A DNA stretch of 64,000 nucleotides from Dictyophora rubrovolvata (taxonomy: Eukaryota; Basidiomycota; Agaricomycetes; Phallales; Phallaceae). The notes beneath the pieces are model-generated. The model saw only the letters and a program-made list of their open reading frames with translations. It had not been told where the DNA came from and made no database searches. Every line of letters begins with the position of its first letter. Position 1 is the stretch's first letter. Shown here in pieces: positions 2-52,833 of this stretch. The DNA lies in assembly GCA_029959195.1 (NCBI GenBank), contig CP114125.1, positions 1,488,001 to 1,552,000 of the forward strand, given 5' to 3'. The position numbers and the translations under genes were made by a program.

Positions 2-447
2 CAGACACCCCATATCGACGGATTTCACTCGCATAACGATCACAACTTCGCCGATGTGGCCGCTAGTACTACTAGTGCTGTCATGGACAATGACAGGCAA
101 TTACAACACCGCAATTCTCCAGTGCATCGAGAGGTAAATCTAGGTGTTAGTGTAGAACAGCCTGGTGTTGATACGTCCCCTCGGGAGACAATGGAAATGC
201 CGTCTGCCTCCCCTTTGAACCCAATAGCAGTCCCAGCTTTGTTAACTGTGAGTAAAGTTTATATGAGATACTGACCCCGCATTTCACACGTTACTTTAAA
301 TTAATGATCTTTAAGGTCTTCAACGAAGAAAGATATGCAGATAGCGGAGTTCGTTTGGGTAGGCAGCAGACACTGTCGTATGGAGCGTTATCGTTGGCTT
401 CTACTATGTCTAAAGATGGGTTACCTCCTATGTATACTTCTCGTTGA
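2..447 (+). CDS. Membrane-protein family copy A, C-terminal end only (cut by window start)
   Basis: The reading frame is open from base 2 and is followed by a GT-AG intron (about 248-315) and a 44-codon last exon ending at TGA 445-447. That exon reads YADSGVRLGRQ...SKDGLPPMYTSR, the tail shared by nine other genes in this window. The helix and ectodomain would lie upstream, outside the window. The visible cytoplasmic part is polar and of low complexity, as in its paralogues. PPMY fits the PPxY consensus for WW-domain binding. Membership in the family is clear from the tail; function is unknown. Confidence 0.7.
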
Positions 448-1055
448 CGTTGGTATACGTATGTTGGTGAAGTCACAGTAGTGTTGTCTCTTCTGTATGA
501 GAATATTGTTCTTTCTTACAAAAAGAAGCCCTATATTATAATCCAGTCGTAGCAAGAGCTTATCGCAATAATACATACGGTTTTCAATGAAAAGATAACA
601 AAGCGAATGGGAGAACATGATTTATCACTCCTAGCCAGTGTGACAACAGGTTTTCGGGGATCAGACTCATGAATGGGAGTAAACGGGAGCGGGTCGCAAA
701 GGATAATCCACGAAAGTTGAACTTCATTACTAGTAGATTATCTGTATATTTTCTAACAGCACAGCTTGAGGACACGGACTACCAAATTAAGACATCGTAT
801 GTTACATGACAAGTCTTAACCTGCGTTTCGCCATCATCCATTGAGTGGCATTGACATGAACGATATATGCCTTCAAAATTAAAAGCTGTCTAGCAAGTTG
901 AAACAAGGAACACACAACAAGGATCGGGCATAATTAAATCAGATATCTTCTTCTACAGTTGAGATATCCTTCCCTGACATCCCATCCGGAGCCCCCTGTA
1001 GTACCCCCTAACCTGACTAACGTCTTTTGCCACTAACAACCATCTCGAGCGCACC
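448..1055. other. Intergenic, no supported gene
   Basis: Only short unconvincing reading frames occur on either strand. The last 100 bases are pyrimidine-rich and lead into the ATG at 1056, which has a favourable context (gcaccATGG), so this is probably the promoter and 5' UTR of the next gene. Confidence 0.4.
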
Positions 1056-1429
1056 ATGGAAATCAAAAGAACCACCGTAGAAGAATTTCTCGAATTCTTC
1101 AGATATCAGCCTAGAAATCCAAGGCGGAAATCACCTGTAAAACGTATCTATCATGTGGTATGTCCAATTTTTTCGTGTTCTTTCGACTGTATTTTGACCG
1201 TTGTCAATGTGTATCTTAGGATCCATCCCTCGAAGATTCGAATGGCAATTCAGATGCCCTAGAATCGTATGCAGCCTTATCTCCCCTAGAGGTAGAAAGG
1301 CTCATAAATGAATGGAGCGAATATAGCAAAAGCCAAGTATGTGCCTTCGAATTTGCCTCAATTGACCAAATTACCCACCTTCCTCAGGCGGCAATATTGT
1401 GGGGAACTGAACTTATCTTCAACTTGTGA
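1056..1429 (+). CDS. Small three-exon hypothetical protein (about 86 aa)
   Basis: I do not recognise this protein. Three exons join in phase: 1056-1157, 1220-1336 and 1388-1429, separated by introns of 62 and 51 nt, both starting GTATGT and ending in pyrimidine-AG. The protein starts MEIKRTTVEEFLEFFRYQ, has a basic patch (NPRRKSPVKR), then an acidic helix-prone stretch, and ends AAILWGTELIFNL. The clean phases and good start context support a real gene, but the short length and lack of a known motif leave doubt. It could also be the remnant of a larger gene. Confidence 0.4.
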
Positions 1430-5576: not shown

Positions 5577-5666
5577 AAGAAACAAGAAAAGTTGTATAAT
5601 GTGCACATGTATCAAGACTTAGCATCACAATGTAAAAACCCCCTTTTAGCACTTTGTTTGTTTTAA

Positions 5667-11793: not shown

Positions 11794-12097
11794 TTTACTC
11801 TGGGTCGACCTGCGGGGTTTACGCAAGGTTTACGTAAAAGCATCGAAACTTTTGAGAATTATTAATTTTGCAGTTACATAATATAGTCGCGGTATTCCTT
11901 TTTCGTAACCACTTAAATAATTTGCATTTGAAGCAATGATGAGTCCATCCAACCTTCCAAAAAATCCATTTCCGAGGAATTTTTCTGGATTTATAACTGA
12001 TGCCGCTCTATAAAAAGACGAAGAGTTTTACTATACGACTACAGGCTCATTCTTACCCTTCTCTTTTTTTCTTCTGCAACTCCCTGAAAATTCCAAT
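11794..12097. promoter_or_regulatory. Divergent promoter, duplication copy 1
   Basis: This 304-nt interval separates the kinase-like gene (minus) from the plus-strand gene and is partly conserved in copy 2, including ACATAATAT and the TATA element near the plus-strand ATG. Confidence 0.45.
12009..12016 (+). promoter_or_regulatory. TATA box (TATAAAAA)
   Basis: TATAAAAA lies 82 nt upstream of the ATG at 12098, and the equivalent TATAAAAG precedes the copy 2 gene by a similar distance. Conservation between diverged copies supports a core promoter. Confidence 0.5.
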
Positions 12098-19159: not shown

Positions 19160-19898
19160 TTGCAGCTCGAGCCGCGGAAAAATAACCATTGCAACTCTCA
19201 GGAACATTTGCTGTATCTACAAAGAATTTTTTATCATACATAACTTTCTTGTGATCTTCATTTTACACTGTGACCCCTTTTCAAAGACTCCCTCTTTTTC
19301 CTTCTGGAGCGCTTCAGGCTCGTTCCCTTTCACTTAAAGTGCTTCAAGACACTGTATCATTTATCAGCGCACTATACTCTTTGAGCTCAGGCAATCAAAG
19401 GTGCGTTGGGCTTCATCTCTTGATGATCTATGCTACAACGATCATAGTACAAAATTAATAGGAAAGATGCCCTGAAACCTCTGTCCAGGTCACGAGCTGG
19501 ATGAAGGCGGACTTCGTAACAACAGTCAGAAATAGAATTAAACTCAATCTCGATTGCGTAGAACACTAAACTACCTCTTTTATTGATGATACCACCATCA
19601 CCCCCAAGGCCTGAGGCACATGAGCTCTTCTGGGTGCTGGACGACATGATAAACTTCGTAACAACCCGCCGTTAACAGTCCGCTCCGCACAACACCCTCA
19701 TTTTGTTTATTCCACCTCTTCCCAGTGAGAGTCTCTAATTGACTCTTTCTCTTCCAACTTCCACATTCGGTCATAAGCCTCTCAAAACACAAATATTCGG
19801 CTGAGCCCACGCGCTTTATTCAACCAAACGACGATCCTCCTTTGGAACATTCAGATCCCGGACCAGCATTCGGCATCGTTTCATTACAGGGCGAAAGA
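19160..19898. other. Intergenic with decayed N-terminal trace of copy B
   Basis: No independent gene is seen. Just upstream of copy B, bases 19808-19835 translate to PTRFIQPNDD, similar to the PTRFIQVTNDN start of copies D and E but without an ATG. The ectodomain of copy B has therefore been lost or moved. Confidence 0.4.
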
Positions 19899-20991
19899 AT
19901 GTCTGCGATACCCTTTGAGCCAAATTCCGTTCCAAATTGTCCAATTCAATTCGTCACTGAGACATTCACTTCCACACTCACTTCCACACTCGCTGCGACA
20001 CACACTTTGACACACACTTTGACACATACGGACATTACAACAGCACCGGTTCCCGGTACGCCTGATATGTTTCTTTTCATGTCAACTACTGATATTGCTG
20101 CTACTTCGATAGTCCCTATTCCAACAACAAAATCTCTTCATCCTCGAGATCTGTTAATTGGCGTCGCTATCGGGGCTGGCCCCTTCTTCATCTCAATGGT
20201 AATTTTCCTATTCAGTCGACGCTTCAAGCGCGTTTCAAAGAGAAAAGGACTATTAGCGTCTAAGGAGCAATACAATACCGCTCGTCTGCAGAGGGATCCT
20301 TCCGTTGAAACCGCCTCTTTACGTGATGATGATGGGCTGGCAGCAGTCAGTCCATTAGGTTACTCAGAAAATAAACGGAGTCGGACTAGTCAGCAAATCT
20401 CGAGCCTTACCAAACCTTATACAAGGCTGACTGTAACTGATTCTCCCGAGACCTTATCAAGCTCCCCGCCGCGATCGTCTTCTCCGACTGTGACTCAGAT
20501 CCAGATACCGACTCTCCCAATTACGGTTTTCCAAGACGACAGCGAAGAAGACCAAACTGAAACCCCCCAAGAGTCTTTCCGAATGTCTTTCCGAATCGCT
20601 CGCAACAGTTTCGTGACCCCAACTCATGCTACCAGTTCAAGTTATCGCCAGCATGCTGTTCGGCCATTACCCTGCCTTCCGATTTCGAGACAAGAGATGA
20701 ACCCAGAGCGCATTAGTGCATGTTCTGAAATGGTGGAGATGCTGACTCCATTACCGTTTGCAAGTTCCAGCACAGCATCTGTGAGTAGAGATTTTTTCTG
20801 AGTAATCCGATCGAACGAAGCATTGTACTGTCGTATTAAATCTTCAGACGACTAGCGCCAAAACCCATACAGATAGTGGGATCCGTCTTGGTAGACAGGC
20901 GTTATCATATGATGAACCGAAATTCGGTACGAATTCCGAGCGGTCTTTAGAGTCGAAGAATATACCACCTCCCACATACACTCGTAATTAG
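19899..20991 (+). CDS. Membrane-protein family copy B (ectodomain lost)
   Basis: From the first ATG (19899, MSAIPFEPNS) the protein has a Thr-rich stalk with TSTLTSTLAATHTLTHTLTH. One helix follows (DLLIGVAIGAGPFFISMVIF), then the basic stop-transfer SRRFKRVSKRK and a Ser/Pro-rich cytoplasmic region. A GT-AG intron (from about 20781) leads to the tail exon HTDSGIRLGRQALSYDE...PPPTYTRN, stop at 20989-20991. Total about 350 residues. There is no signal peptide and neither of the galactose-binding-like modules of copy D, so topology and function are uncertain. The PPTY motif is kept. Confidence 0.65.
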
Positions 20992-21881: not shown

Positions 21882-22790
21882 TTAATGAGGAGTATATGTG
21901 GGCGGCAGCCCTTCTTTTGAACTTAATGAGAACCGAGTCTGATATGATAACGTCTCCCCTGAACCCAAACGGACACCACTATCCATTTGCGTTTCCCCGG
22001 TGATTATCTGACGATCATTCATCGACATGATCAGCCGTCTATGATTTAACCAAAGCTTGGACTCTACTCACTGAAGCTGTTATCGAGCTCATTTCCATAA
22101 CTTCCGTGTCAGCATCAACAGCCCCGACTTCCGAATCCACCGCATCTCGTTGGAGAATTTGATGTTCATCGTCCACATGTAGATGATTCAGAAGACTCGA
22201 ATTAGAAGTGCCATTAGACATTACTATTTGGCTCGTACTGTATAAGCTGATTGTCATTGGATACTTGAATAAAACGAGTGGAACTTGTCGACATTTGTGA
22301 GAAACAAACGAGGACAGTAGGTTATAAGCAAGATTGCCAGTGGCCGTTGAAGAATAAGCTGGTAGAACTTGAACAGAAATGTTCGTCGGAACCATCCTTG
22401 TTCACATAATGCGGCGTTCTACGCTGTTGACAGTTGGGCTGGGCGGATAAAGGGTTGAGAAGTTCGAAGAAAAGTAAAGCACCCGTCCCGAAAACATGCA
22501 AGTGATTTATAATACAATCCCCCGTGCACAAACGGTATAAATAAATAGGTGAGTGAAAGAGTTCATATGATCCAGAGGATAGCAGCGAAGGGGATCACCG
22601 TATGTACGACAGGGAGAGCTTACACGGAGTTATTTTGAACTGTGGGTTGGCATTGATACGTCCACCAACTCTGATTGGCTGTTGGGAATGTAAAGTATCA
22701 AAATGAGAAGAAAGGACGTTCGTGCTCGGTATTTCATTGTCCACTTTGCAGCGTACAAAATCGGATCCAAACGCAGCGTCAAAAAGGGTC
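21882..22790 (-). pseudogene. Membrane-protein family copy C, degenerate
   Basis: Traces of the family lie in order on the minus strand. RCKVDNEIPSTN (about 22730-22790) matches the CKVDDNT stretch of copy D. Further on is DTEVMEMSSITAS (about 22070-22110), and after a splice comes the tail exon MDSGVRLGSGETLSYQ...LPPTYTPH with stop at 21882-21884. No transmembrane helix and no continuous ectodomain frame survive. The tail itself is open and keeps PPTY. Confidence 0.6.
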
Positions 22791-23873
22791 AAAACTATTG
22801 TGGAAAGTACTAATACAAAATGCGAAAATAAGATTTATCTTTGATAAGAAGCTGAACCCTTACCCTTCCGTCTGGAAGCAGTCGTGCCGTTGTATTGTAT
22901 TTCCAAAAGATGAGACACAGGAACTTCTATTTTCCTGGCGATTTGAAAGATATAGCTCGTGCTCAAATTGGAAGAGAGTGGACTACGTAATTGAGTGGAT
23001 ATTATTGCCAGCTGCTAAGAAACCTGTGGTGGCCGGTTCAACATCCAGCTCAGGTGGTCGGCTCATCTTTTGATAGTTTATCATTTGATGTTGTTGTTGA
23101 TGTTGGTATACTCCTAGAATTGAGCTTAGAAAACATCACAACCGAAATAAGTATCTAACCAAGATTCAGGCTTACATGAGGTAGTTTACTAACTCCTTAC
23201 TTCAGTGCAAATTCGCGCTTCGATGCATGGTTTTCTCTTCCTAGAGTCGCTGTCTTAGTTGCAACAAGAGCTGTCATTCAAAGGAACGTAACTTGTCGAG
23301 GCTCTGAAGTACGCGGAAAAGCCGCAGTGCGGAGCTTGATATGTGTGACTGCGTGACTTAACGTGGCATACTAGTTCCTTTCACGAAAACCGGGGTTCTC
23401 AGAATTCAGACCGTTCGGCTTTTTTTTCGTGCTGTGTACCCTTTTACGGTTGGATTCTGGCAACGTTGTGGCATTGGGAATATGGTTTACCAACAACATC
23501 GCCGGCGCTGAAGAATCCTGTGGGCCCGCGTTGGCAGGATCTTGAGCTTGACCAAGCTCAAGTCCAGAACTGAGGCCGTACGTTCAGTACCTTGACTGAA
23601 GCCGCAAAACGACTCATTTGAGGCTTTGCAGGGTCCTTTCAGCGGCACCTCGATAACTGCGGTCACTCCAGTCCTCCACATCGACTTACGAGTAGGTGGA
23701 CGGTGTTCATGTCCTGGTGAGATTTGAAGGTTGGCGCTTTCAAAGGCCGGTGTTGGAATATATTGCATAAGACTTACATTTCATTAGGAATTCAGTCGTA
23801 CTACTTACATTCAGGAACAGTTAAGCACTGTTTAATAAAAGCTTTTCAAAACCATTCTAATAACAGTACCAGC
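22791..23873. other. Intergenic, no supported gene
   Basis: A few frames of 60-130 codons on both strands show no domain and no conserved partner elsewhere in the window. Confidence 0.35.
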
Positions 23874-25850
23874 TTAATCACGAGAATAGGCGGGGGGTAG
23901 TCTGTCTTTAGACCTCCAGGAAATCTCAGAATCCGTCTCATCATATAATAATTGCCTATGCAAACGAATTCCACTGTCTGCATGTCTCTCATCATTACCC
24001 TGAGAAATTAGAGCCAATATCTTAATGCAGTTACCGTAGATCCATGAAAACTCTATACGTACCGGGATAGCGTTCAAACTCAAAGGGAGAGAAGTTATCC
24101 TCTCTGTCATATCAACAGCCGCACCGACTGAGATCGCCTCTTGCATCGGAATCAGAGGATTAGATCTACCAATGCGCTCTAGAGAACCTAGATTGGCAGC
24201 ATCATCTAGAATAGGGTTAACACGTTCAGCCTGAAAAACTCTTCGGGGATTTTCAGCCATCTGTTCTTCCTCGATTGCAGTTGGAGAGCTCGAAATTCTA
24301 AACGCAGTTGAAATCGCATTGCGGGATCTATTGACTGGCGAGTCTATTTGTCTTTCGATACAGCCGGCTGGAGATAGCTTTGCAGAAGCTGTGCTACTGC
24401 CTAGGACTGGCAGATTGCTTTGGCTCTGTCCATGGATATTTGACGAGTCTGATGTGTCTTCCTGTATAATTCGCCATTGGTAAGGTGATATGTTGAACGC
24501 CCCCTTGAGCTTCTTTGCTCGTTTGACAGAAAATAGTTCGGGTCGCCGGCGTCTTAACAGAAAAACGGCGATTATCACGGAAAAACAACTACCGAGGCCC
24601 ACAATGATGCCGATTAGTAGTGTATTCGATTTGCTAGATGATTTGGCTGGAGCAGATTGGGTATGTAAAGGCGGGGTTGCAGGAGTGGATTTAGATGGCA
24701 CGGTAGTGGAAAGAGAAGTTGCAGAAGAATATTGAGAAGACATTCCTATATCCTGAGGAAGAGAAGTAGAGGATGGAGAACGCAAAGAAGTGGGTTGAGA
24801 AAATGCAGCGGGGGTGGTTTGGGAAGACATGGTATCGGAAACCCCGGTGATATCTGGGAATGGTTGAGTAGGCGCGATATTACTAATGTTTTGTACGACT
24901 ACGAAAGAAAGGCCAAGGGCAGTTTGTGGACCATCCCCCAAGTACGTTGCTGTGAGTTTATGCGGACCTTGGGGAAGAGTCTCAGTCTGAAATAAAACTT
25001 GATTGAGTAGGGTAGACGCAGATCCATCTTTATCGGGGCCCGAAAGAGCGAATTGCTTAGGGGCCCCTCCGTCGACAGAATATTCGGCTGAGGATGGATT
25101 GGATGGCAATAAAGTTGAATAAGCCCCGAACCAAGTCAGTTGTTCGCCTAATTGGGTTTAAATAAATCCTCAATATCAATAGAACAAACGCAATCAGATC
25201 TACATACCAATAAAAGGTATTGTCATACCCTGGCCTCGACCGTTTGCAAGTCGAGTCGAGCCAGTATCAGTTTCGACGGCAAAACCACCCAGATAAGTTA
25301 CAGACGGATCAGTTGCTTCAATACGAATTGACGCACTTGTTGGCAAATCTGGCTGACTGTTTGGCGAAGGAGCGTATAGAATGTAGTCAAAGTAAATTGA
25401 AGAACCGGCTTCGGAGTTGGGAATGTCAAATGTAAGTGTGTGTTCGCCATCTGGTAAGCTTCCGCTATCGCAAATAGCCCAGTTGTTTTGGGCAGACTGC
25501 GGTATGTTAAGGTTTATTGTATTGTCGTCCACTTTGCAGTTTGCAGCGGGGCTCTGTTCAGATTGGGTGGTAGTTGAAAGAGGTAGATATGTTACCATCA
25601 CTATTATTTCGACCCCTGTGAAGTTGATATATGAAGGCAAGATCTGTCTTTTGTGAATTAAGAAGTATTTACCATCGAAGCTAAAAGAAATGTTGCCGCT
25701 GCCGCTTTGAATCAGAAAGGGAGATACAGGATCTCCCATGTTTCCGACTTGAAACATCTCGCTCGTGCTTGGTATACTTCGCCATACATTATTTGGCTCA
25801 TAATTGATAAGAGAATTGTCGTTTGTTACCTGTATAAAACGAGTTGTCAT
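23874..25850 (-). CDS. Membrane-protein family copy D, most complete member
   Basis: The start is MTTRFIQVTNDNSL at 25850. Module 1 contains ISFSFDG, then after an intron VEIIVMVTYL, CKVDDNT, NNWAICDSGSLPDGEHTLTF and IYFDYILYAP. A second intron leads to module 2: GEQLTWFGAYS, AEYSVDGG, LFQTETLPQGPHKLTATYLG and LGLSFVVVQN. Both modules resemble the galactose-binding-like ectodomains common in fungal single-pass proteins. A Ser/Thr stalk follows, then the helix TLLIGIIVGLGSCFSVIIAV and RRRRP. The cytoplasmic region ends with the spliced tail exon HADSGIRLHRQLLYDE...DRLPPAYSRD. All visible splice phases work. No N-terminal signal peptide is evident, so delivery to the surface is unclear. PPAY is a candidate WW-domain ligand. 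Confidence 0.8.
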
Positions 25851-26797: not shown

Positions 26798-28562
26798 TCA
26801 ATAGTGAGTGTACAGAGGTGGTAGTCTGTCTTTCGATCGCAAGGACCACTCTGAGTTTGTCTCATTATACAATAATGTTTCCCTATTCAGGCGGACACCA
26901 CTATCTGCATGTCTTTCTTCAGGCCTCTGAAAAACTCAACCTGTCAATACAGTCCCTTTTCAATCAAAATCTCCACTTACGGCTGTGGGGCTCGATCTCG
27001 AAAACGGTGCCGCCAGTGCCGATGTTTCTAACATTTCAGCAGCTGCGCGAGTGGATCCTGAGTCTGCTAAATGCGGCGCTGGAACAAAAGTATTGACTAA
27101 TGGTCGATTATGCTTATTAAGACTTAAATTGGCAGCATCGTTCGGGAAACGACTGTCGTGAACAGCTAGAGGAAACGGTGGAGGGTTATTGTGAGTTAAT
27201 ATTACGTCTTCTCCTCCAAAATTTGCAACAGGAAGGCTTGGAATTTGAAATGGAGTTATGGCATAAGAGTTAAATAACGCTTCCGTAGAGCCAGCTGAAG
27301 TTTCCGTCGCAAAAACCGGGCTGTGATGCTGGGTTGGCAGACTATTTCTGTCGTGGACACTGAAAGAGTCTGGCATGACCGTCGATATAGTTCGCATGGC
27401 CCGCCCTCGGTTGGATGATATATCGAACCGCTCTTCAGGTTTTCTTTTTTCTAAGCGGCGCCCCCTCCATCGTCTGAAAAGGAAAAGGATGACTATGAGA
27501 AGAAAAATCCCAACGCCGGAAGCGATGCCAATTATCATGTCCCGATCGTTGCGTGACCCTGCTGAAGTAATTTTAAGAGGCGTAGTAGTGGGAACTTCTG
27601 CCATAGTACTGTTGGGTATCGGACTGGGTGCGGTATTGCTAAAGTTCTGTACCATTACGAAAGAAAGACCGAGGGGTAGTATTTCTCCACCAAGATATGT
27701 CGCTGTGACCTGGTGAGGACCTAGTGGAAGAACCTCAGTTTGGAAGTAAGGCTGATTGAGTAAAGCAGGGAAGTTAGAAGGGATTGCAGCTTCAAGAAGA
27801 AATTCCGTAGGGGTCCCTGCATCGATGGAGTATTCGACTGGGGAAGATGAGGCTGGAGGGTGGGCCAGGTAGGCTCCATACCAAGTCAGTTGTTGGCCTG
27901 ATCGAATCTAAGACATTCATAAAATTGAAAAAAAAAAAACTTGACTAGACCTACCGACAAATGATACTGTCGCGGATGCTCCATAAGCGTTCATGAACCG
28001 AGTCAAGCCCGTGTCATTTTGAAGCATGAACCCTCCGGAATAGGTTATAGATGGGTCAGATGCTTCGATGCGAGTTGATACGTCGGTCAGGTCGAGCATT
28101 TTGGTTGGGCAGGGAGCATATAAAATATAATCAAAGAAGATCTCAGGTAAGTCAATGTTGACTGTGAGTGTGTGTTCGCCATCTGTCAAGTTCCCACCAT
28201 TGCAGACAGGCCAGTTGTTCTGTGGGGATTGTGGAAAATTCGTGACCAAAAATTGATTGTCTACTCTGCAGCTCATAAAGCTGGGATCATGTGATTCCTA
28301 CCAAAAAGTGAAAGTGCGACATGTGAGAACGGATTTGGTTTTCAGACAAACCGAGAATGTGTTTACCCTCAAAAGTGAAGGAAATGGCGTCGTTCATCAT
28401 GCCGCCATTGAATGTTTTCAAAAAGGAAGACACAGGCGCCCCCATATTTCCATGTTGAAAGATAGGTTCGGTTTTTGACATGCCCGTCCATGAGTTATTA
28501 GACGCATATTTCACCAGAGAGTTGTCGTTGGTTACTTGAATAAAGCGAGTTGGACCATCCAT
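26798..28562 (-). CDS. Membrane-protein family copy E (module 1 possibly disrupted)
   Basis: MDGPTRFIQVTNDNSLVKY at 28562 matches copy D. Module 1 continues to ISFTFEG, then SCRVDNQF, NNWPVCNGGNLTDGEHTLTV and FFDYILYAP. Module 2 follows with LTWYGAYLA, VEYSIDAGTP, YFQTEVLPLGPHQVTATYLG and LGLSFVMVQN, then the helix DMIIGIASGVGIFLLIVILF, RRWRGRR and a cytoplasmic region. The tail exon HADSGVRLNRETLLYNE...DRLPPLYTHY stops at 26798. The first two exons do not join in frame with the splice sites I can see (about 28270-28375): the segment equal to VMVSYILADDL of copy G is deleted. The protein may start further in, or the gene may be slightly broken. Confidence 0.7.
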
Positions 28563-29932: not shown

Positions 29933-31264
29933 TTAATTGTGAGAATATAGGGGAGGTGGTCTGTCTTTCGATCGCAAGGACCACTCGGAATTTGTCTCAT
30001 CATACAATAGTGTTTCCCTCCCCAGACGAACACCACTATCTGCATGCACCTCTTCAGGTAACTAACAATTCAACGTATCAATAGGGTCCTATTAACTAAA
30101 ATCTCTGCTCACCGTTGTGGAACTCAACCTCGAAAACGGTGTCGATCTTTCTAACCCTTCGGCAGCGGCGTGAGTGGATCCTGAATCTGCTATTTGCGGC
30201 CCTGGAACAAAAGGATTGGGTAATGACCGAATCTGCCGGTCAAGACTTGAATAGGCAGCATCATTCAAGAAACGGCTGTCCTGAACTACCAGAGGAAGCG
30301 GTCGAGGATCATCGTGAGTTGTTTTCTCTTCTTCAAAATTTCCGACAGGAAGGCTTGGAATTTGGAATGGAGTTATTGCATGGGAGTTAAATAACGCTCC
30401 GGTAGAAGTTTCCGTCGCACCAACTATGCCGTGATCCTGGGTTAACAGACTATTTCTACTTTGCCCACTGTCAGAAGAGTTTGGCATGGCCGTCGATACA
30501 ATTCGCATGGCCCGTTCCCGGTTAGATGACACCAACACGTCGTCTTTTGCAAGCACATTACTCGTGTCGCCTGATAAATGACCGCAACGATGACAACGAT
30601 GTTGCTGTCGTCGTTTGAGGAAGAAAAAGAGTCTAGCTGTTAAGAGTGCAAGTGCAAGGGTTCCGCCGACTACTCCACCTACTATTGCCCCTGTGTTTGA
30701 GCTCGAGTGCGAATGCGCCGATGCCCCTGTCATCGAGCTTGAGGGCGACTGCGGTTGAGCCGACCCCCCTGTCATTGAGCTTGAAGGCGAATGCGGTTGA
30801 GCCGACGCCCCTGTTTGAAAGTCGGTGCTGGAGCTGGAACCGAGGTTGGATGGGATACAGGATGTATCAGCGCCCTGATGGACACTGAATGCAGTTTCGG
30901 TAGCAGATGATGTATCATCAAATTCCGAGCTTCCTTGTTCAGCTTCAACCCTGGCAAAACCAGTAACACCATACAACCCCGCTGGAACATTTGCAAACCA
31001 CATTATGCTCATCGGACCTTCCAGTATCTGCTCTGCAGTGCCTTGAATCTTCAACGGGACTGATACGGAAGAGTTGAAACCGGATATTGTGATTGTCAAG
31101 TCAATGGTCGATGTGGTGGAGGGGAGGATAGCACTAAGATCAGATGGGGCGTTGAGGATATCCCAGTTGATGGATACGTTTGTGCAGGTTGTTGCGTCCG
31201 AGATAGGCCCAATTGTCCAATCGAGTGAGAATGAGGAGAGCGTACTAGTAGAGGGTGACGACAT
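29933..31264 (-). CDS. Membrane-protein family copy F with a different ectodomain
   Basis: One long frame from MSSPSTSTLSSFSLDWT (31264) encodes an ectodomain unlike the others: FSLDWTIGPISDATTCTNVS, INWDILNAP, TIDLTITISGF, VPLKIQGTAEQILEGP, then a stalk with repeated SPSSSMTG.SAQPH units. The helix GAIVGGVVGGTLALALLTAR is followed by FFFLKRRQQH. The cytoplasmic region (ITPFQIPSLPVGNFEEE) and the spliced tail HADSGVRLGRETLLYDE...DRPPPLYSHN are very close to copy E. The frame is open across about 390 residues before the tail splice. A Ser/Thr-rich stretch continues upstream of the ATG, so the true start could be in another exon. It appears chimeric: new outside, shared inside. Confidence 0.75.
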
Positions 31265-31688: not shown

Positions 31689-33329
31689 TCAACTACGCGT
31701 ATACATGGGAGGTAGTCTTTCTTTGGACTTGACGACTCAGAAATCGTCCCATCATATAATAATGTTCTACTGAGACGAACTCCACTATCTGCATGCCTTT
31801 ATTGAGTCATCTGAGCATGACAATGTGGTCAATTTTACGTTCAACTAAATTCTATACTACTTACTGTCACTGCGTCCTGCCTCGGAGGTAGTGGTGCTAT
31901 ATATAATCGGTATTTCCGACACTTCAGCGGTTGCGTCAACATAACCTGTGTCTGCTTCTTTGGAAAACATCGATATCGTAGGACTAGGAAACGGCCGATT
32001 CAAGCTCCACTGACGAAAACCCAAAATAGCAGCATTCAGGTCACTCGAAATGGGGCCAGCTCTCTGGGGAGTTTCTAGTACTGCCCGTTTATCTGCTTCC
32101 TCGACAACTGCGGCTTGAAGACTCGTAATCTGGTATGGACTCGAGGCTAAGGCATAAGACCCTGCCGGAGAGCCCAACGATTCGGACATTTGAGTAGAGT
32201 CAGCTGAACCTAGCCTGGCGGGAGTTGCGCTGTGGTCCGGGATAGTACTCCAAGTTTGTCTATTGGTGTCCGGTATAACTGCCTGCATCATGGATCGATC
32301 TCGAATAAATGAAGCAGAGATATCAACAGAGGAGTTTCCTTGGGATGGATTTCTAGCAGATAGCTCTCGAGACGTCTTTTTTTGCTTTTCAGCATGCTTT
32401 TTATATCGCCACAAAAAGAAAATGGCGATTGTAACAAAAAGGAAGGTACCAACTCCGACGACAATTTCAGTTGCTATATTCCGATTGTTGCGTGATCTCA
32501 CCGGAACGGTTCGAGATGGTCCAGCAGTAGGGACGTCCGTGGTGCCGGCACTAGTGCCACTAGTGAAAGATATCATGGTACTGGTGAAAACCGTTGTAGA
32601 AGAAATGTCTGCACTACTATTGGAAGCGAGGTTTGTAGTGAATGTCGACGTCTGCACGACAACGACAGATTCAGTTTTAATGACCGGTACCATGGTTGTC
32701 GTTCCAACCTCATTCGTGAGGTGAGTCGAGCTCGCCTCATTTGCCATTACTGTACTTTTAGTGCTTTTTAAAGAGGCGCCAGTACGAGTTGATTCAACTG
32801 TCGCGTTGGGTTGGTTGTTGGGGGCAAGAGGGTTGTTGGAGGCAAGAGTATACAAAAGGTAGTCAAAGAAGATTGAAGAGAGTGGGTACGGATCCGATAT
32901 ATAAACTGTCAGTTTATGCTCTCCATCTCGCAAGTTTTTGAAGTCACAAAGAGGCCAGTTATTTTGAGAAGAAGGTGGTATAGCTCCGGTCACGATATTG
33001 CTGTCCAATTGGCAAGTTACACTGGGATCAGTGAGATCATCGGCAAGTATGTATGACACCATCACCGATATGGAGAGCCCTGGTTAAAGATAGTATGTCA
33101 AAACAAAGAATTTCTTTTCGACGAATATGAGAAAGTTTCTCACCCTCAAAGCTGAAAGAAATTGAGCCGCTATTTATACTTTTCAGGGAGGAAGATAACG
33201 GAGCCCCCATATCCCCGGTTTGAAATATCGCATTTCTTTTGGGACGTCATTCCAAGCACTGACATTCAGGTTATAATTTATAAGAGGATTGTCGTTGGTT
33301 ACTTCGACAGAGGGGACTGGACTTGCCAT
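31689..33329 (-). pseudogene. Membrane-protein family copy G, several disruptions
   Basis: The start MASPVPSVEVTNDNPLINYN (33329) and the next segment AIFQTGDMGAPLSSSLKS lie in different frames, so module 1 has a one-base shift. The next exon is open and long: VMVSYILADDLTDPSVTCQL, NNWPLCDFKNLRDGEHKLTV, FFDYLLYTL, a Thr-rich stalk and the helix ATEIVVGVGTFLFVTIAIFF with LWRYKKHAEK. Module 2 is absent. In the tail exon an in-frame TAA precedes HADSGVRLSRTLLYDG, and one A is missing from the SKS codons, so the PPMY motif is out of frame. A shorter membrane protein could still be expressed, but without the tail. Confidence 0.65.
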
Positions 33330-43809: not shown

Positions 43810-45105
43810 TTTATCCAAGTAACCAACGACGAGCCCCCTTGTTAAATACGAGTCTGATGACCTCATGGGATAGCAGACCAAAACTAAGCGCCTATTTGGG
43901 GGAGTGATGAAAAATGACACGGTTTTGACTCAGTTCGTAAACGGTGGAGGAGTATCTATGACAGTATCATTTGTCGGTATGTCTAGTTTTGTTTTTCTAC
44001 CTCACCAATGATAGACTTAAACCCGATCAGGTCAACAACTGATTCCACGCGGAACCCACAGCCACTTTCTTCACCTCTAGCTGCATACTCTATCGATACA
44101 GGACCCAATTTCATTCTTGATACAATTTAGATCCCTCTAAACTGCTCTGTTTTCCTTGGCCATCCTTATTTTCGAACTGAGATTTTTCTACAACTTGAAG
44201 GTCCTCACCAGGTCGCGCGTACGCATATGTGGGTAATGGAGAAACACCCATTAATCTCCCTCTCATAGTCGTACAGAACTTCAGCAATATCACGCCTAGT
44301 ACCCTCACTGCTAGTTCCATGGTAGATGTCGTCCCTTCTGATGTAGGTGCTATCACTTTCGAGCCGGATGACCCCCCCTCACTTTAATAACCCTGCAGGT
44401 GTTCGGCTCCATACAACCAAATCACCGTGTCTTTTCCAGTACCGCAACTGTCGTTTCCAGCTTCAGTGCGACATTTATATGCAGACCGTATCGACGACTG
44501 TGACGTCACGGTCATGCCAGACTGCGAGTCTCCCAATGACTGTCTTGATGATGTCCTTTTAATCCGAAACCGCGGCACGGTTTTCACGACACGATGCCGT
44601 CTTTAGCTGACTCTGCCGAAACGTTACTCGACTCTTACACCGTACCTTCAATTCAAATTCCAAGCCTTCCCGTTGCAGATCTTGAAGAAGCCGGAATCTC
44701 AACCCGCGCTGAGAATCCTCGACGGTTTTCTCAAACAGCTCGCGACAGTTGTATCCCGAATGATGCTGCCAATTCGACTTTCCGCCAGCGCGGTCGGCCG
44801 TTACCCACTCCTCCGGTTCCAGCGACGTAACTAGGAGACTCGGGACCTGTTTACGCAGCTGCTGAAGTATCGGAGATGTCGACTGCCAGTGCATCGCCTT
44901 TGAATTTAATAGCGGTGAGTGGTGATTTCAGGATTGATTGAAAAGGGACTTTATTGACATATTGAATTTTCATTAGCTGCCTGAAGAGAGGCATGCAGAC
45001 AGTGGCGTTCGTTTGGGCAGACGAACAATATCGTATGATGAGACGAATTCAGAGTGGTCTTTACGGTCAAAGGACAAACTACCTCCTCTGTACACCCATA
45101 ATTGA
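43810..45105 (+). pseudogene. Membrane-protein family copy H, degenerate, helix lost
   Basis: Recognisable pieces run in order on the plus strand: FIQVTND (about 43810), NDTVLTQFVNGGGVSMTVSF (about 43915-43975), YSIDTGPN (about 44088), SADSAE-like and VPSIQIPSLPVADLEEAGIS with RAENPRRFSQTARD (about 44600-44760). The tail exon HADSGVRLGRRTISYDE...DKLPPLYTHN stops at 45103-45105. The pieces are in different frames, and the region that should encode the transmembrane helix (about 44350-44560) is gone. The tail is perfectly kept, including PPLY. Confidence 0.65.
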
Positions 45106-45418
45106 TCTGATATTATTACCGAAGCAAATATCAAGCCCTTTTACGAACTATAAAATTACGAAATTTGCACCAAGACGAATCTAAAAATCAATACGAAATA
45201 AAGCAGAGATGTCCAGCATTTCCTTGAAGGTCGGTTTATCGCTCTTCGGAGCGTAACTGAAAGTGGCACACCTTGCGATTCAAAGACAGTGAGAGGCTCG
45301 TTCGTCCCATACATGATTGGACACAGATGTTGTCCCTAACTGTCCACTGGTATCCGCCCAGCCGTATGGACACATCTCTGTCAGAGGACAAACTTCCCCT
45401 TGATCAAGTTAGTTCTTG

Positions 45419-45426
45419 TATATATA
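45419..45426 (+). promoter_or_regulatory. TATA box (TATATATA)
   Basis: CTTGTATATATAGTCC lies about 107 nt upstream of the ATG at 45526 and is conserved at the equivalent place in unit 2. Confidence 0.55.
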
Positions 45427-45525
45427 GTCCTTCGGGACCGTGTTTTCATCCAACAGTCCCCTCATCCTTCTTGCATTCCAAGCTCATTAACAGATCTACA
45501 CCAGTGTCAATATCAATATTCTACA

Positions 45526-46444
45526 ATGCGCCACATCAATGTCAATGTCAACATCAACTTTGAAAACCGCGACACTACCGACGAAACTTATGCTGACCTC
45601 GATCCAACTTTACGTCCCGCCGCGACCCAGTCTCCTAACCAAATGGTATAACCTAATCCGATTCCTCTGAATCTTACTCATACGTGGGTGGTTTATTGAC
45701 GCGTATTTTAGAGTGAAATGCCTGAGCCGATATATGATCATGCATCAAATATTATGTGGATGCCTTTTAAAATGGAGGATATGAAACCAATAGAAATTTC
45801 CATTGATAATGTGCCCCAGGGCCCGATGTTCCGTAAGACCGGATCCTCCTTCGCTCGTGCAAGCCACTGATATGGCATTTATAGCTGATCAACTTGAAGA
45901 CCAGCCATCTGGTCATGGATCTACTACTTGCGCCGCGAATGACTGGGGTGTTAATATTGATCCCAGTTTGCAACGGATGCAAAATAACCATCAACTTAAC
46001 ACCGTCAACGCGGCCACGTCGTGCGCCATTACCCCATCCTCCTCCCCACTTAAATCAAGCCCATCAAAGAAACAATCTTGCACCGAGAAAGATTTCACAC
46101 ATATTCCTGGGCTCTGCAAACAAACATCCCCCAAAGTTTGGAAATGTCTCTTTAGGGACCCACGTTCAAAAAGCACCCGGACTTCTCACTGCGGCAACGT
46201 TCTGCGAGGAACACGCGATCTAAATCGACATATCGGCGTTCACGCCAAAACTGAGGAGCGCCTCATCGAGCTCGGAAAACTTTCCGCTGAGGAGGCCGTG
46301 GCAATTCCCAACCAGGTTCTGATGGAATACGAGTGCGAGGTTTCCAGTTGCGCGTTTTTGAGGAAGAATGGGACACCCTTTCGACATGTTGGCTATCGGG
46401 TGGATGCTCAAAAGGCTAGGCATATCCGAGAGTATCATTCGTAG
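45526..46444 (+). CDS. Putative zinc-finger-like protein, copy 1
   Basis: Three exons (45526-45645, 45712-45832, 45885-46444) join in phase into 266 residues. The leader has MRHINVNVNINF, TYADLDPTLRP, MPFKMEDMKP and DNVPQGPMF, then a Ser/Pro-rich basic stretch (SSSPLKSSPSKKQS). The C-terminal half has two Cys/His clusters. The first is KVWKCLFRDP, TSHCGNVLRGTRDLNRHIGVH; the second is YECEVSSCAFLRKNG with ARHIREYHS. The C..C..H..H spacing suggests C2H2-type zinc binding, though it matches no classical finger exactly. A nuclear DNA-binding role is plausible, not shown. It lies just upstream of membrane gene I, as its copy lies upstream of gene J. Confidence 0.7.
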
Positions 46445-47028
46445 CCTTGCAGCGAAGAACAATGTCAATGGGAAGACAATGGGAAGAGGTCTAGAGAAGT
46501 GAAAGTGGTTATTTTAATGAAATCGTGTTCAAAATATTGGTGCAGAAAAGTATACCTTAGATTTGTAAAAAGAAACCGCTTGTAATGACATTTGAACAAA
46601 GTGTTCGTTTATAAGTATAGCAATGTGCATTGTGGATGTGGACTTATCGATCACAAAGAAAGGGAAGCACCCATGTGTGTCCATGCCACGTCGGAGCCTA
46701 AAATAAGCGCCGGTACAGTACAGAACGCCTTTTTCGCCTGTGCAACTGCAACGATGTGGATCGCGCAATGAGTCGAACGTCGACCTTATCAATATCCAAT
46801 ATTCAACGTTTAACATTGACACCGACTTTTGAATCCTTATATTACTGCACGATGCTAAACGACAAACTGCGAAATCCAGATCTATCTTAAACGGTAAATC
46901 TCATGCATCTCCACTTGCAGTTTCGCCCACATTCGATTGCTCAACCACGCATTGAGTAGATTATGACGACGGTCACTGAATGAGCGAACAATCAGGCAAT
47001 CAAAATATCGAGGGCATCATTGTTGAGG
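46445..47028. other. Intergenic between zinc-finger-like gene and membrane gene I
   Basis: Homologous in part to the region after 50364. No gene is supported. Confidence 0.35.
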
Positions 47029-48722
47029 ATGGGAAATCGATTCAGACAAGTCAACGTCTCTTCAAATTTCGGACGTATTCGAGACCCACTGGCGCTTAGC
47101 CAATTGGTGACAGTAGCATTCTGGCTGAGCATTATACTATCATTTGGTTTCGACCATCACCGTCGCCATATGTCCATCATCTATCCTAGCTATAATACGC
47201 ATGACATCCTCATGGTCCATAGGCCCCTTCCTCATAGTGCACACTCTATTGAGACAGAGCCTCCCACTATTAATTTGTTCCTGATACAGTTGAGATCCAG
47301 TCGAACTACTCTGTTTTCCTTAATTAACATTGTTTTTTTTCGAACTGAGGTTTTCCCCCCCCAAGGTTACAGCGACATATTTGAGAAAATACCACCTTCG
47401 TTGGTCATACAGAACTTGAGCAATATCGCGCCTGGATCAAAATCGCTACTGAACAGCACCTTTCCTGCTATGTCTATGTCTATATCGATGGCAGGTGTCC
47501 TCACTCCTATGGTAGACGTCGTCACTTTTCAGGAGGACAACTCTTTTCCTTTGTCTCTAGGCCCTGTCATTTTCACACCGTCAGCGCCCTCTCCCCCCAT
47601 CGTGCCGCCAGGTAACCCTGGTGCCCCACCGCCGAATGAAACCTCTTGTTCAAGTGACCCTGGCCCATCTTCTTCCTTCCTATCGCCTGCCAGTGGTGAC
47701 CCCTCTACTAGTACCCCACCGCCGAATGAAACCTCTTTTTCACCAAGTGTTGCTCCTTCGACACCACCAGTCACTACCACACTCATGACTACCGTCACCA
47801 AGTCGACACCTACACTTACACCTACATCTACACTCACGTCTAATGACGTCATTGTTACAATACTCTCGCCGATTGATGCCCCCACTTCCACTGCGTCAAA
47901 ATCGCGCTTGAAAGATCATCGGAATATCATGATGTTAATTGGCATAGTAGTCGGCATCGTAGGGTTTCTTCTCGGAGGCGTTCTTTTCCTTTTTAGACGA
48001 CGTAAAAAGCGCGGCTCGAAGAAAAACAAGTCCGAACAGCATTCCGAGTCCGATCGAGAACGATCGACACCAGACAATATTATGTCGGACGAGTCTTCCA
48101 ATGTCCGTCATAATGGTGACCTTGGGCAGAGCAGACTTGTACACAATCGGATGTTAATAACCCCATTCCACATTCCAAGCCTTCTTCAAGTTCAACCTGG
48201 GCCTCAGGCTGAAGGAGAAGAAGACAAAATCTTAAGTCGCGCTGAGAACTTCCCTCGACGGCTTTCTCAGGCTGTTGTTGTTCTGAACGATGGCTATATC
48301 CACAGTCAGATTCAGAATGACGGTCCCGCTGCCAATTCAGGTTCTCACCAGCACACTGGTCCGAATCGACTGCTGCCCGATCCTCCGGCTCGAGTGCCAC
48401 AACTATTACTAGTAGGAGATTCAGAATCCGTCACTCACGCAGCTGTTCAAGTATTTTCGGGAATGTTGACTGTGCCACCTTCGCCGCCGAGTTGGAGACC
48501 GAACTCCACAACGGTGCCAGTGAGTAGATAGTTCCCCCAACTAGGTTGACAGAAACCGCATTGACATTGCTGAATTTTTATTGTACATAGCTACCTGACG
48601 AAACGTTCCATGCAGATAGTGGTGTTCGTCTGGGTAGGGAAACTTTACAATATGATGGTGGGACAAGTTCGGAGTGGTCTTTACAGTCGAAGGACAGACT
48701 ACCACCCTTGTATACCCCATAA
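47029..48722 (+). CDS. Membrane-protein family copy I
   Basis: Exon 1 (47029-48519) is open for 497 codons from MGNRFRQVNVSSN, and a clean splice leads to the tail exon 48591-48722. The first 140 residues are a shortened, altered remnant of the ectodomain (HSIETEPPTINLF, VFFRTEVFPPQG and LVIQNLSNIAPG match module 2 of copies D and E). A long Pro/Ser/Thr stalk follows with two PPPNETS repeats, then the helix IMMLIGIVVGIVGFLLGGVL and FLFRRRKKRGSKK. The tail HADSGVRLGRETLQYDG...DRLPPLYTP keeps PPLY. An extra hydrophobic stretch near the N-terminus (LVTVAFWLSIILSF) may act as a signal anchor. The frame is intact, so this copy is probably expressible. Confidence 0.75.
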
Positions 48723-49474
48723 ATTAATCCGATATTGCCGTGCGCGTGGAGGCACATTGTGTTCGGAATTTTTTGCTTGACATTGACAGGCAAACCAGTT
48801 TTAGCCGTGTAACTCAGAAATTTACTCTTTGCTGTTTGTGCTATGGCTCACTGGCACGTCGCATTTACATACTGTAGTTAAAATTTTCAACAGCGTGCCT
48901 ACAATACAGGGGTGGTAATCTATTTTCCGAATATAATTTTGTTGAAAGGGCCACGACAGCTTGTGATCCCAGGGCGACGAACCAGCAGCCTGCAACCACG
49001 CGGTTTAGGACATTACACATTCAAAATGATTGAATACCAATGACCTCAGGCTCCGTCAATGCCAACGCATAATATACAGCTAACGAATGAATTGGAAGGC
49101 TCTCCTTCTCCTCTAAAAAAAGCCATGGGATCGATTATCAAACCCTCCCAGCAGAACAGTCTATCGTAAGGTGTGCCACTTTCAACTACGCTCCGGAGAA
49201 CAATATATCGATAAACCGACATAGCTGAGAGGCTTGTTCGTCCCATAGATAAATGGACACAGATATTGTCCCAGCTGTCCACTGTGATGTCCACCCGGCC
49301 GTATGGACACATCTCTGTCAGAGGACAAACGTCCCTCTGATCAAGTTACCCCGGTCTCGTTCTTGTATATATAGTCCGTCAGGACCACTTTTTTTCATCC
49401 AACCGTCACTCATCCTTCTTGCATTCCAAAGCTCATTAACAGACTTACACCGGTATCAATATCAATATCCTACA
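48723..49474. other. Intergenic between duplication units
   Basis: Contains the unit boundary and, on its right, the TATA-bearing promoter of the second zinc-finger-like gene. No gene is supported. Confidence 0.35.
49366..49373 (+). promoter_or_regulatory. TATA box (TATATATA)
   Basis: CTTGTATATATAGTCC lies about 109 nt upstream of the ATG at 49475, matching unit 1. Confidence 0.55.
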
Positions 49475-50364
49475 ATGCGCCACATCAACTACGACACTCC
49501 CGAGGACACTTACGCTGACCTCGATCCAACCTTACGTCCCGTCGCGACCAATTCGACCCAGCCTCCTAATCAAATGGTATAATCCTAGTCTGATTTCTTT
49601 TACACATACATACATTGATGGTTTATTGACGCGTATTTTAGAGCGAAATGCCTCCACCAATTTTTGACCCCGCGTCAAGAATTGTCTGGATGCCGTTTAA
49701 AATGGAGGATGTGAACCCAGCAGATATAACCTTGGATAATACCCCCCAAGGCCCGATGTTCCGTAAGACACGTCTGAATCTTACTTTTTGACAAGCCACT
49801 GATATGTCATTTATAGCTGATCAAGATCAGCCATCAAGTCATGAATCTACCGCTCCGGACGCGAATAATTGGGGTGTTAACATTGACCCCAGTTTGCAAC
49901 GGATCAAGAATCAAATTAACACCGTAAACGCGACCACGTCGCGCGCCATTACCCCATCCTCCTCCCCACTTAAATCAAGCCCGTCAAAGAAACAGTCTTA
50001 CACCGAGAAAGATTTCACACATATTCCTGGGCTCTGCAAACAAACATCCCCCAAAGTTTGGAAATGTCTCTTTAGGGACCCACGTTCCAAAAACACCCGG
50101 GCTTCTCATTGCGGGATGGTTCTGCGAGGAACACGCGATCTGAATCGACATATAGGCGTTCATGCTAGAACGGAGGAACGCCTTGTTGAGCTCGGAAAGC
50201 TTTTGGCCGAGGAGGTGGTGGCAATTCCCAATCAGGTCCTTATGGAATACGAGTGCGAGGAGGCTGATTGTGGATATTTGAAGGAGAATGGGGAACCATA
50301 TCGCTATGTTGCCTATCGGGTGGATGCTCAAAAGGCTAGACATCTCCGAGAGTATCATTCGTAG
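49475..50364 (+). CDS. Putative zinc-finger-like protein, copy 2
   Basis: Three exons (49475-49576, 49642-49762, 49817-50364) give 256 residues and share intron positions with copy 1. The leader is MRHINYDTPEDTYADLDPTL; the Cys/His clusters are KVWKCLFRDP, SHCGMVLRGTRDLNRHIGVH and YECEEADCGYLKENG with ARHLREYHS. All Cys and His positions of copy 1 are kept, while several surrounding residues differ (SCAF against DCGY), which suggests constraint on the metal-binding residues. Role unknown. Confidence 0.7.
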
Positions 50365-51429
50365 TCTTACAGCGAAGAACAATGGGAGGAAGTCTAGAGA
50401 AGTGAGAGCGTTTATTTATTGAAATCATGTAAGAATATCGGCGCAAAAAAATATACCTTAGAATTGTAAAAAGAAACTTCATTTGAACAAAGTGTTCGTT
50501 TATATACATAGCAATGTGGATGTGGACTTATCGATCGCAGTGAAAGGGAAGCACCCATACGTGTCCATGCCACGTCGGAGTTTGAAGTGAGCGCCTGTAG
50601 AGCCCACCGCGTTTTTCACCTGTATATGAGGTGCAATGTTGTAGAAGATTATGATATGATGGGACAACTTCAATGTGGTCCTTACGGTCTAAAGATAAAC
50701 TACCTGGTCAAAAATGGTCCTTGTGGCCCTGCTGTTGGTGCTCTCCACGTCTATCCCCGATTTTTTCCGCTCAACCTTCATTAATTCATTGCTGATTTGG
50801 TCAACGTTGGCTCCGTATTTGCGCCGTCGTTTGCGTCGGTAATGGTTCGTGGTTGTAGTAGATGAGATTGGCAAGACAAAGTTTTGTGTTGGAATATCTC
50901 TAAGGCTGGAGGCATGCCGTTCTTCAACGTGTGCCAACTAGGAGATATTTCGCCTGTAGCCTGGGATTTGTCTTTCTCGATTTTCCTATTTATGAATCGT
51001 TAACGTCCGGTGCGCAGTTTGAATATGGTACCCACCTGTTTCTGCAACCTGCGGCCGCGGCCCTTAACGATAGTCTTGAACCAGACTGCTCGATGGACAA
51101 CCCGCTCCCTATACATATGCATGTCCATAATGCATCTTGAAATATTGCATGCACTAATGCATTTACTATGCATAGCCCACACGATATGGAGTCCTGTTGG
51201 CTATCTATACCATGGGTCCTATGTAAACCACTCAGATTTCGCCGTCTGTCCTATCATTTAATTTTGACTACCATCATGATCATGACACCCCCAATGACTG
51301 ACTCGCCAATATGGAGTTTACACTGCATCATATACCCTTTCCTAGCCCCACCGTGGAAAAAGTGGTCACTGAGTGGAGTAGTATTCAGTGGTGGTTTTTT
51401 CCATAGTGCCCTTCTCACGTCTAGCCCCC
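50365..51429. other. Intergenic, one relic tail inside
   Basis: Apart from the relic tail at 50635-50710, there is no supported gene. The right end has traces homologous to the start of copy I. Confidence 0.35.
50635..50710 (+). pseudogene. Relic tail exon of the membrane-protein family
   Basis: The bases TATGATATGATGGGACAACT, then GTGGTCCTTACGGTCTAAAG and ATAAACTACCTGG, match the YDETNSEWSLRSKDKLP segment of the family tail. No helix or ectodomain is nearby upstream, and the PPxY codons are not intact. It is an orphan trace of an eleventh copy. Confidence 0.5.
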
Positions 51430-52833
51430 CCCGCAGACTCTATTGAGACATCGCCTCCCATGCCATTCCTCCTTCAAGATACAGCTGAGATCCCGTCGAA
51501 CTACTCTGTTTTCCTCAACCCAATTTTTTTCTCGAACTGAGATTCTTCCACAACTTGAAGGTCCTGATCAGGTCACAGCCTGAGGAATGGAGTAACGGAG
51601 AAAAATCCATTACTACTCTCTCTTTCATAGTCATACAGAACTTTCAGCAATATCACTCCTTCAATAATCCCATGGCAGATGTCTCCATTAATTCCAGCCT
51701 TCAGCATGTATGTAGGTGTTATCGCTTTTGAGCCGGATGACCTCTCCCTCACTTTGATAATCCTACTACAGTCAACGACTGTTATCACCACTGCGATAAC
51801 GTTAACGTCTGTCTTTACCACACCTGTTATATCGTCAGAGACCTTCGTTGTGATATCATCTGTTTTTATATCGTCAATAACCTCTACGATACCGCCCCCG
51901 TCCAGTGGTGTCACCTTAACTCCGACAGTGGTTGCCGTCCCCGCCCCTATGCCAAGATCAAGCAGCGACCGGGAAATCATAATTGGGATTGCAATAGCAA
52001 TCGGAGTGGGAGTTTTTCTTCTCACAGGCGTGGTTTTTATTATTTTCAGACGATTCCGCAAAAAGCAGCGTCTCGGTTTGAAAGAAAAAAAGCGACCTGA
52101 TGTATCATCCGATCGAGAGTGAGCCATACAAACCATGGTCATCCCAAACTACGAGTCTTCAAATGTCATTCGTCATGATAATAATGATGATCATGATGAT
52201 GGCGTTTTGATCCAGAACTACGACACAGTTTTGACGATGATACCGTCTTCAGCTGACTCTGCCGAAATGTTAATTGACACTCACACCAACGTGCCTCCGA
52301 TTCCAAGCCTTCCTGTTGCAGAGTTCGAGGAAGTTAAAGTTGAAGACAAAATCTCAATTCACACTGAGAACTTCCCTCGACGGCTTTCTCGGCCGGAAGC
52401 TAGCTATAATATCCCGAATGATGGTGCGAACTTGAATTCGACTTTCCGCCAGCACAGTCCTCGGAGTCGGCGATTGCCCAATCCTCCTCCGGTTCCAACG
52501 ACGCAACTATTAGAAGATTCGGGATCCGTCGTTCACGCAGCAGCAGTAGCTGTTGAAGTGTTGTCAGGGATGTCAACTGCGTCACCTTCGAGTTGGAGAC
52601 CAAACTCCACAACGGTGAGTAGATACTCCAAGTAAACTGACAAGAACCGCATCAACATGCTGAATTTTTTATTATTATTACGTTAGCTGCCTGCCGAGAG
52701 ATGGCATGCAGATAGTGGCGTTCGTTTGGGTAGGGGAACTTTATCGTATGATAATGATGATGATGATGGGACAAATTCAGAATGGTCTTTACGGTCGAAG
52801 GACAGACTACCACCCGTGTATACGCATAATTAA
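51430..52833 (+). pseudogene. Membrane-protein family copy J, interrupted after the helix
   Basis: Traces of ectodomain module 2 (SFIVIQNF near 51626) are frameshifted. From ATG 51679 (MSPLIPAFSMYV) the frame is open through a Thr/Ile-rich stalk, the helix EIIIGIAIAIGVGVFLLTGV and FIIFRRFRKKQR. TGA at 52120-52122 then stands where relatives have CGA (RERAM). Beyond it the same frame stays open for about 165 codons (PSSADSAEMLIDTH, PPIPSLPVAEF), and the spliced tail HADSGVRLGRGTLSYDN...DRLPPVYTHN stops at 52831-52833. Expressed from 51679, the product would be an anchor without its cytoplasmic region. A GAT repeat adds extra Asp residues to the tail. Confidence 0.65.

What the first reader, a model, noticed from the sequence alone, without database searches (positions are those of the whole stretch)
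2..52833. Array of about ten paralogous single-pass membrane proteins sharing one tail exon
Copies A-J (2-447, 19899-20991, 21882-22790, 23874-25850, 26798-28562, 29933-31264, 31689-33329, 43810-45105, 47029-48722, 51430-52833) plus a relic at 50635. Complete members pair a two-module galactose-binding-like ectodomain with one helix and a spliced tail HADSGVRLGR...SKDRLPPxYT. Roughly half are damaged or rearranged. Such birth-and-death evolution at one locus is typical of recognition or adhesion genes. I know of no described system with this layout, but that is from memory, not a search.
Basis: partly seen in the sequence, partly recalled or inferred. Interest (0 to 1): 0.75.

Follow-up and report, generated by a model that had tools for sequence, protein, structure and literature searches.

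The report
Mushroom receptor-gene cluster with constant tail
A fungal chromosome segment carries a run of duplicate genes for membrane proteins, many of them broken, that keep one short inner tail with a likely docking site for the cell's protein-recycling machinery, while their outer parts decay or are replaced.

Summary
The array is real: 10 copies (A-J) plus a relic carry the tail exon (motif: 9 matches, 0.01 expected). But only D is clearly an intact two-module gene (598 aa, 3 introns). E is open only with an awkward 103-nt intron. F is open, but its whole head and TM are unrelated to the other copies: homology to E begins abruptly inside the cytoplasmic region. I is open with a scrambled head, B only as a headless remnant. 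C, G, H and J are broken; A is cut by the window edge. So the shared unit is the cytoplasmic tail, not the ectodomain.

The tail ends in PPxY in 9 of 9 in-frame copies, with synonymous codons varying and x free; tail dN/dS is below body dN/dS in all 25 of 45 pairs that have both values. Best reading: a birth-and-death cluster of fungal surface proteins whose constant tail recruits a Rsp5/Nedd4 ubiquitin ligase while heads are exchangeable. A galactose-binding-like fold was not confirmed. Average module dN/dS shows constraint, not diversification. Recognition or adhesion is untested: no strain, RNA or relative genome was available.

The parts
2..447 (+). copy A: only the cytoplasmic end and the tail exon (from about 322) visible, cut by window start; LPPMYT
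19743..20991 (+). copy B: open frame with a TRFIQ remnant without ATG before it, first ATG at 19899; no modules, TM-like segment, cytoplasmic region, tail PPPTYT
21882..22963 (-). copy C: TRFIQ piece, weak module remnants and an in-frame tail exon (LPPTYT)
23874..25850 (-). copy D: intact gene, 598 aa; introns 25672-25616 (phase 1), 25207-25148 (phase 1), 24062-24000 (phase 0); two modules, S/T-rich stalk, TM from residue 372, tail LPPAYS
26798..28562 (-). copy E: two modules but a stretch of module 1 missing; open only with intron 28366-28264; tail LPPLYT
29933..31264 (-). copy F: chimera, unrelated head and TM (31264-30530) joined to an E-type cytoplasmic region (30529-29933); intron 30112-30062; tail PPPLYS
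31689..33329 (-). copy G: one module, TM-like segment; frame breaks near 33236 and 31732, PPMY out of frame
43810..45105 (+). copy H: decayed body (6 frame shifts, 1 stop), in-frame tail exon LPPLYT
47029..48722 (+). copy I: open 540-aa frame, scrambled module-2 remnant, S/T/P-rich stalk, TM, intron 48520-48590, tail LPPLYT
50631..50705 (+). relic of a tail exon (lacks HADSG and PPxY)
51430..52833 (+). copy J: module-2 remnant with frame shifts, TM-like segment, stop in the juxtamembrane region, tail LPPVYT
45290..46741 (+). flanking unit 1 of the segmental duplication (ORF 45794-46444; no Pfam match)
49226..50623 (+). flanking unit 2, 79.8% identical to unit 1

Best explanation
A local birth-and-death cluster of fungal (probably mushroom-type) single-pass membrane proteins. 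A head of one or two modules sits on a Ser/Thr-rich stalk outside the cell; one helix crosses the membrane; a fast-changing cytoplasmic region ends in a separately spliced, strongly constrained tail of about 40 residues whose C-terminal PPxY motif docks the WW domains of a Rsp5/Nedd4-type ubiquitin ligase. Docking would ubiquitylate the protein itself, or a partner captured by the head, for endocytosis and vacuolar breakdown. Heads decay, shrink or are replaced (F); the tail is kept. Shown: copies, exon structure, lesions, head replacement, tail constraint, PPxY conservation. Inferred: topology, surface location, ligase docking, ligand binding.
For: PPxY in 9 of 9 in-frame tails (A-F, H-J): first Pro by CCA, CCT, CCC and CCG, second by CCC and CCT, Tyr by TAT and TAC, while x is M,T,T,A,L,L,L,L,V. 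Tail dN/dS is lower than that of the rest of the cytoplasmic region in 25 of 25 pairs with both values (45 pairs in all; the other 20 lack a ratio); among D,E,F,H,I,J 0.07-0.31 against 0.35-0.90. F joins E abruptly at 30529/27418, 484 of 634 columns identical, no match before. H's tail exon is closer to J although its body is closer to E/F (codon permutation p=0.0016, post hoc, 6 comparisons run). Basic residues after the TM, S/T-rich stretch before it. PPxY proteins recruit Rsp5 to membranes: PMC10357820 (passages); PMC2171029 (listing only).
Against: A crude hydropathy check shows no signal peptide in D, and the codon before its ATG is TAA, so export of the head is not explained. PPxY function is a motif inference. 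4 of 10 copies are broken and 2 more are headless or doubtful, so the locus could be mostly debris. The body alignment is of a fast-evolving region, and misalignment would inflate its dN; many dS values are saturated. D-E modules show no diversifying selection on average. The HADSG half of the tail is as constrained as PPxY, so PPxY need not be the whole story.
Confidence: 0.5

Rival explanations
1. Recognition array: heads bind glycans or surface molecules of other hyphae, plants or microbes, and the locus is polymorphic between strains.
For: Multi-copy locus with loss, segmental duplication and head replacement; a NACHT-WD40 (NLR-type) gene lies inside it at 36351-40672; galactose-binding-like proteins are numerous in Armillaria (84 and 89 genes) and partly induced in wood-invading mycelium (PMC7827401, section 3.7 read).
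Against: dN/dS of D-E modules 0.21 and 0.27; no strain data; NLR genes are common in Agaricomycetes (72 hits per species over 22 species in PMC4986451, passages), so one nearby may be coincidence; the Armillaria proteins were not shown to be this family.
Confidence: 0.3
2. Mostly dying tandem duplicates of one ordinary membrane protein gene (D), with no function for the array itself.
For: Of 10 copies 4 are broken, 1 headless, 1 doubtful, 1 cut off; only D, F and I are open with a head.
Against: F has a different head with an intact tail; E-F dN/dS in the cytoplasmic region is 0.54 (interval 0.33-0.87, 140 codons); tail constraint across copies.
Confidence: 0.3
3. The tail is conserved for another reason: the HADSGxRL half or a phosphorylation site is the working part, or gene conversion alone keeps tails alike.
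For: D, S, G, R, L of that half are as invariant as PPxY among the 8 tails; signs of tail exchange in H.
Against: Synonymous differences in the tail are many (pS 0.32-0.68 among D,E,F,H,I,J), so conversion alone does not explain the amino acid conservation.
Confidence: 0.25

Closest known systems
Galactose-binding-like domain proteins of Armillaria (PMC7827401, section 3.7 read, other passages seen)
   Different: The text read says nothing of a TM helix, tail, arrays or PPxY in them, and 35-50% of the induced ones are CBM67; homology to the present copies not tested
PPxY membrane adaptors/cargo of yeast Rsp5 (Bsd2: PMC10357820 passages; Sna3: PMC2171029 listing; Ssh4, Ear1, Rcr1/2 recalled)
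   Same: Membrane protein with a cytoplasmic PPxY
   Different: Sequence relation not shown (no Pfam family matched above cutoff here); here multi-copy with exchangeable heads; ligase binding untested
Wsc/Mid2 wall sensors (recalled)
   Same: Single TM with Ser/Thr-rich outer part; weak Pfam Mid2 match to E (15.8 bits, cutoff 23.2)
   Different: Below cutoff; two modules and a PPxY tail here
KIR/paired receptor clusters of mammals (recalled)
   Same: Works-like only: birth-and-death array, heads and tails exchanged
   Different: Not compared by sequence; function here unknown

Membership tests
Galactose-binding-like superfamily (jelly-roll modules) | profile match | tested here: not met
   No Pfam match above cutoff for the D, E and G exons tried or for the spliced D head; best Big_3_5 22 bits, cutoff 35.5. 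Absence of a match does not exclude the fold
Galactose-binding-like superfamily (jelly-roll modules) | beta-sandwich jelly-roll fold | tested here: inconclusive
   D module 1 model pLDDT 45.8, strands predicted; Foldseek best E 0.029 to C2 domains, none <=0.001
Rsp5/Nedd4 PPxY adaptor or cargo | PPxY in a cytoplasmic segment of a membrane protein | tested here: met
   9 of 9 in-frame tails; TM and basic flank; that the segment is cytoplasmic is inferred
Rsp5/Nedd4 PPxY adaptor or cargo | binds WW domains; ubiquitin-dependent sorting | not testable with these tools
   needs a binding assay
Vegetative/somatic incompatibility (recognition) locus | allelic or copy polymorphism between strains | not testable with these tools
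   no genome held for the window; no fungal genome collection among the tools
Mid2-like wall sensor | Pfam Mid2 above cutoff | tested here: not met
   15.8 bits against 23.2 for E, 10.9 for J

The most novel reading that the evidence does not exclude
A fungal surface-receptor locus with a constant-tail, exchangeable-head design: unrelated ectodomains are grafted onto one PPxY tail that couples whatever they bind to ubiquitin-driven uptake, possibly serving non-self recognition next to an NLR gene.
Probability: 0.2. Interest if true: 0.7.

Novelty: new variant of a known kind. Interest (0 to 1): 0.42.

Why it matters
How mushrooms sense neighbours at the cell surface is, to my knowledge, poorly understood. 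If the PPxY tail is the fixed working part and the heads are swappable, one tail probe (PPxY plus HADSGxRL) could find such receptors across fungal genomes whatever their heads, and a pull-down would test the mechanism.

Tried and rejected
Relatives elsewhere: scans of viral contigs and genome contigs (25, 29) and tblastn of phages and plasmids found none; these are not fungal collections, so this says little. PDB by sequence: none for the D head; for the F head only weak matches (best E 0.36, a collagen-binding adhesin). Foldseek on both poor models (63: best E 0.029, C2 domains; 64: best E 0.071, a Ruminococcus carbohydrate-binding module): not used. NCBIfam: nothing relevant (57). Pfam nearest to its cutoff was TM_ErbB1 for the F TM (26.5 against 27.1 bits). 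Paper searches for this family or design: 15 of 62 listed; 15 of 29; 12 of 108; 3 of 3; 12 of 69; 6 of 6; none found; 3 of 3; no listed title or abstract opening describes it; the library is open-licence only and I saw listings, so this is not proof of absence from print. Snowball (PMC10949477, passages) is a seven-TM protein, rejected as a relative. A clean crossover in H by informative sites was not seen (E/F against I/J 25 to 25, E/F against J 54 to 47, intermixed); the codon test was chosen, so p=0.0016 is post hoc. A signal exon upstream of D, E or G was sought by eye without success; F has a hydrophobic open stretch just upstream of its ATG that I could not resolve. My recollection that this head type is widespread in Agaricomycetes, and that the F head resembles a second mushroom family, comes from no call.
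Full report
What is there. The window has the look of a fungal, probably Agaricomycete, chromosome: short introns, a NACHT-WD40 gene, a RUS-type (UVB_sens) gene and multicopper oxidase exons; the assignment is inference, and no genome is held for it. The DNA motif behind HADSG occurs 9 times with up to 2 mismatches (0.01 expected from shuffles); C is the tenth copy with a variant.

State of the copies. D is the only clear two-module gene: 598 residues, introns of 57, 60 and 63 nt, a TM from residue 372, a second marginal hydrophobic stretch inside module 1, and no signal peptide by a crude hydropathy check. Both modules of D are split by a phase-1 intron at the same place, after an F-x-G stretch; the profile comparison aligns these places (P=0.007, but probability only 5.5% with 3 and 2 sequences), which fits an old module duplication. 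E has lost a stretch of module 1 behind its first intron; the frame stays open only if a 103-nt intron with a poor acceptor is used (worked out by hand). G has one module and two clear frame breaks. B has no module and no ATG before TRFIQ, and is open only from an inner ATG as a headless protein. H has 6 frame shifts and a stop; J has 6 frame shifts in and beside the module-2 remnant and a juxtamembrane stop. C is fragments. I is an open frame of 540 residues with a scrambled head. A is cut by the window edge. So of 10 copies, 3 are open with a head (D, F, I), 1 is headless (B), 1 doubtful (E), 4 broken (C, G, H, J), 1 not judged (A).

Head replacement. F is homologous to E only from 30529 (E 27418) onward, 484 of 634 columns identical, and not before. 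The break lies in the cytoplasmic juxtamembrane region, so the F head and its TM are foreign to the array. The F head has no significant relative in the window (best other match E 0.85), in Pfam or in the PDB by sequence (best E 0.36). A 47-nt direct repeat (85%) lies on both sides of F, at 29506-29552 and 31448-31493; whether it marks the event is unknown.

Tail constraint. Of 45 pairs, 25 have a dN/dS for both the tail exon and the rest of the cytoplasmic region, and in all 25 the tail is lower; among D, E, F, H, I and J the values are 0.07-0.31 against 0.35-0.90. The other 20 lack a ratio: A has no comparable body (9 pairs), and B and C pairs are saturated (11). The highest tail value is 0.45 (A-B). 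PPxY is kept in 9 of 9 in-frame tails with synonymous codon changes at both Pro and at Tyr, and a free x; in G it is out of frame. The HADSG half is equally constrained (D, S, G, R, L invariant in the 8 tails aligned; C and G not included).

Exchange and growth. H is closer to E and F in its body but to J in its tail exon by synonymous differences (p 0.0016 and 0.0018; against I 0.016 and 0.013; two further comparisons 0.07 and 0.27). This is post hoc, and site patterns show no clean breakpoint. A 1.4-kb segment (45290-46741 and 49226-50623, 79.8% identical) with a conserved reading frame (81% over 194 residues) begins 185 nt after H and again 504 nt after I, and is followed by I and by the relic, so at least one step was a segmental duplication.

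How it may work. By the positive-inside rule (recalled) the basic stretch after the TM puts the C-terminus in the cytosol, and the Ser/Thr-rich stretch before it fits an outer stalk. PPxY is the known docking motif for WW domains of Rsp5/Nedd4 ligases, which send membrane proteins to the vacuole (PMC10357820, passages; PMC2171029, listing). I therefore favour heads that bind a ligand or partner and a tail that recruits the ligase. The ligand side is unknown. The missing signal peptide is an unsolved point.

Against the recognition reading. D-E module dN/dS is 0.21 (0.08-0.41) and 0.27 (0.09-0.45); D-G module 1 is 0.32 (0.16-0.56). These averages show constraint and cannot exclude a few positively selected sites. 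The heads are less diverged than the cytoplasmic linker (D-E dN 0.38 and 0.37 against 0.69). Polymorphism could not be tested.

Verdict. The fold is not confirmed, the recognition role is open, and the PPxY-ligase mechanism is the most testable reading.

Noticed in passing
36351-40672 (-): NLR-type gene: NPHP3_N/NACHT domain and WD40 repeats, set inside the array between G and H
   Followed up: partly
29506-29552 and 31448-31493: 47-nt direct repeat, 85% identical, on both sides of the chimeric copy F
   Followed up: no
9583-12902 and 13021-16505: Tandem duplicate, 72-77% identical; part of the minus-strand reading (YYWIDFGLSYRF) looks kinase-like to me, but no Pfam match at E 0.01 for the two ORFs of the first copy tried
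   Followed up: partly
21225-21336 and 21632-21521: 112-nt inverted repeat, 93% identical, just downstream of copy B
   Followed up: no
31264-31468 (-): Open hydrophobic stretch without ATG directly upstream of the F start, behind a plausible acceptor: a possible signal or anchor exon (read by eye)
   Followed up: no
60771-62186 (-): Multicopper oxidase exons
   Followed up: no
54216-55929 (+): G+C-rich, repeat-rich open frames (tandem units of 6-30 nt), no Pfam match for the two tried
   Followed up: no
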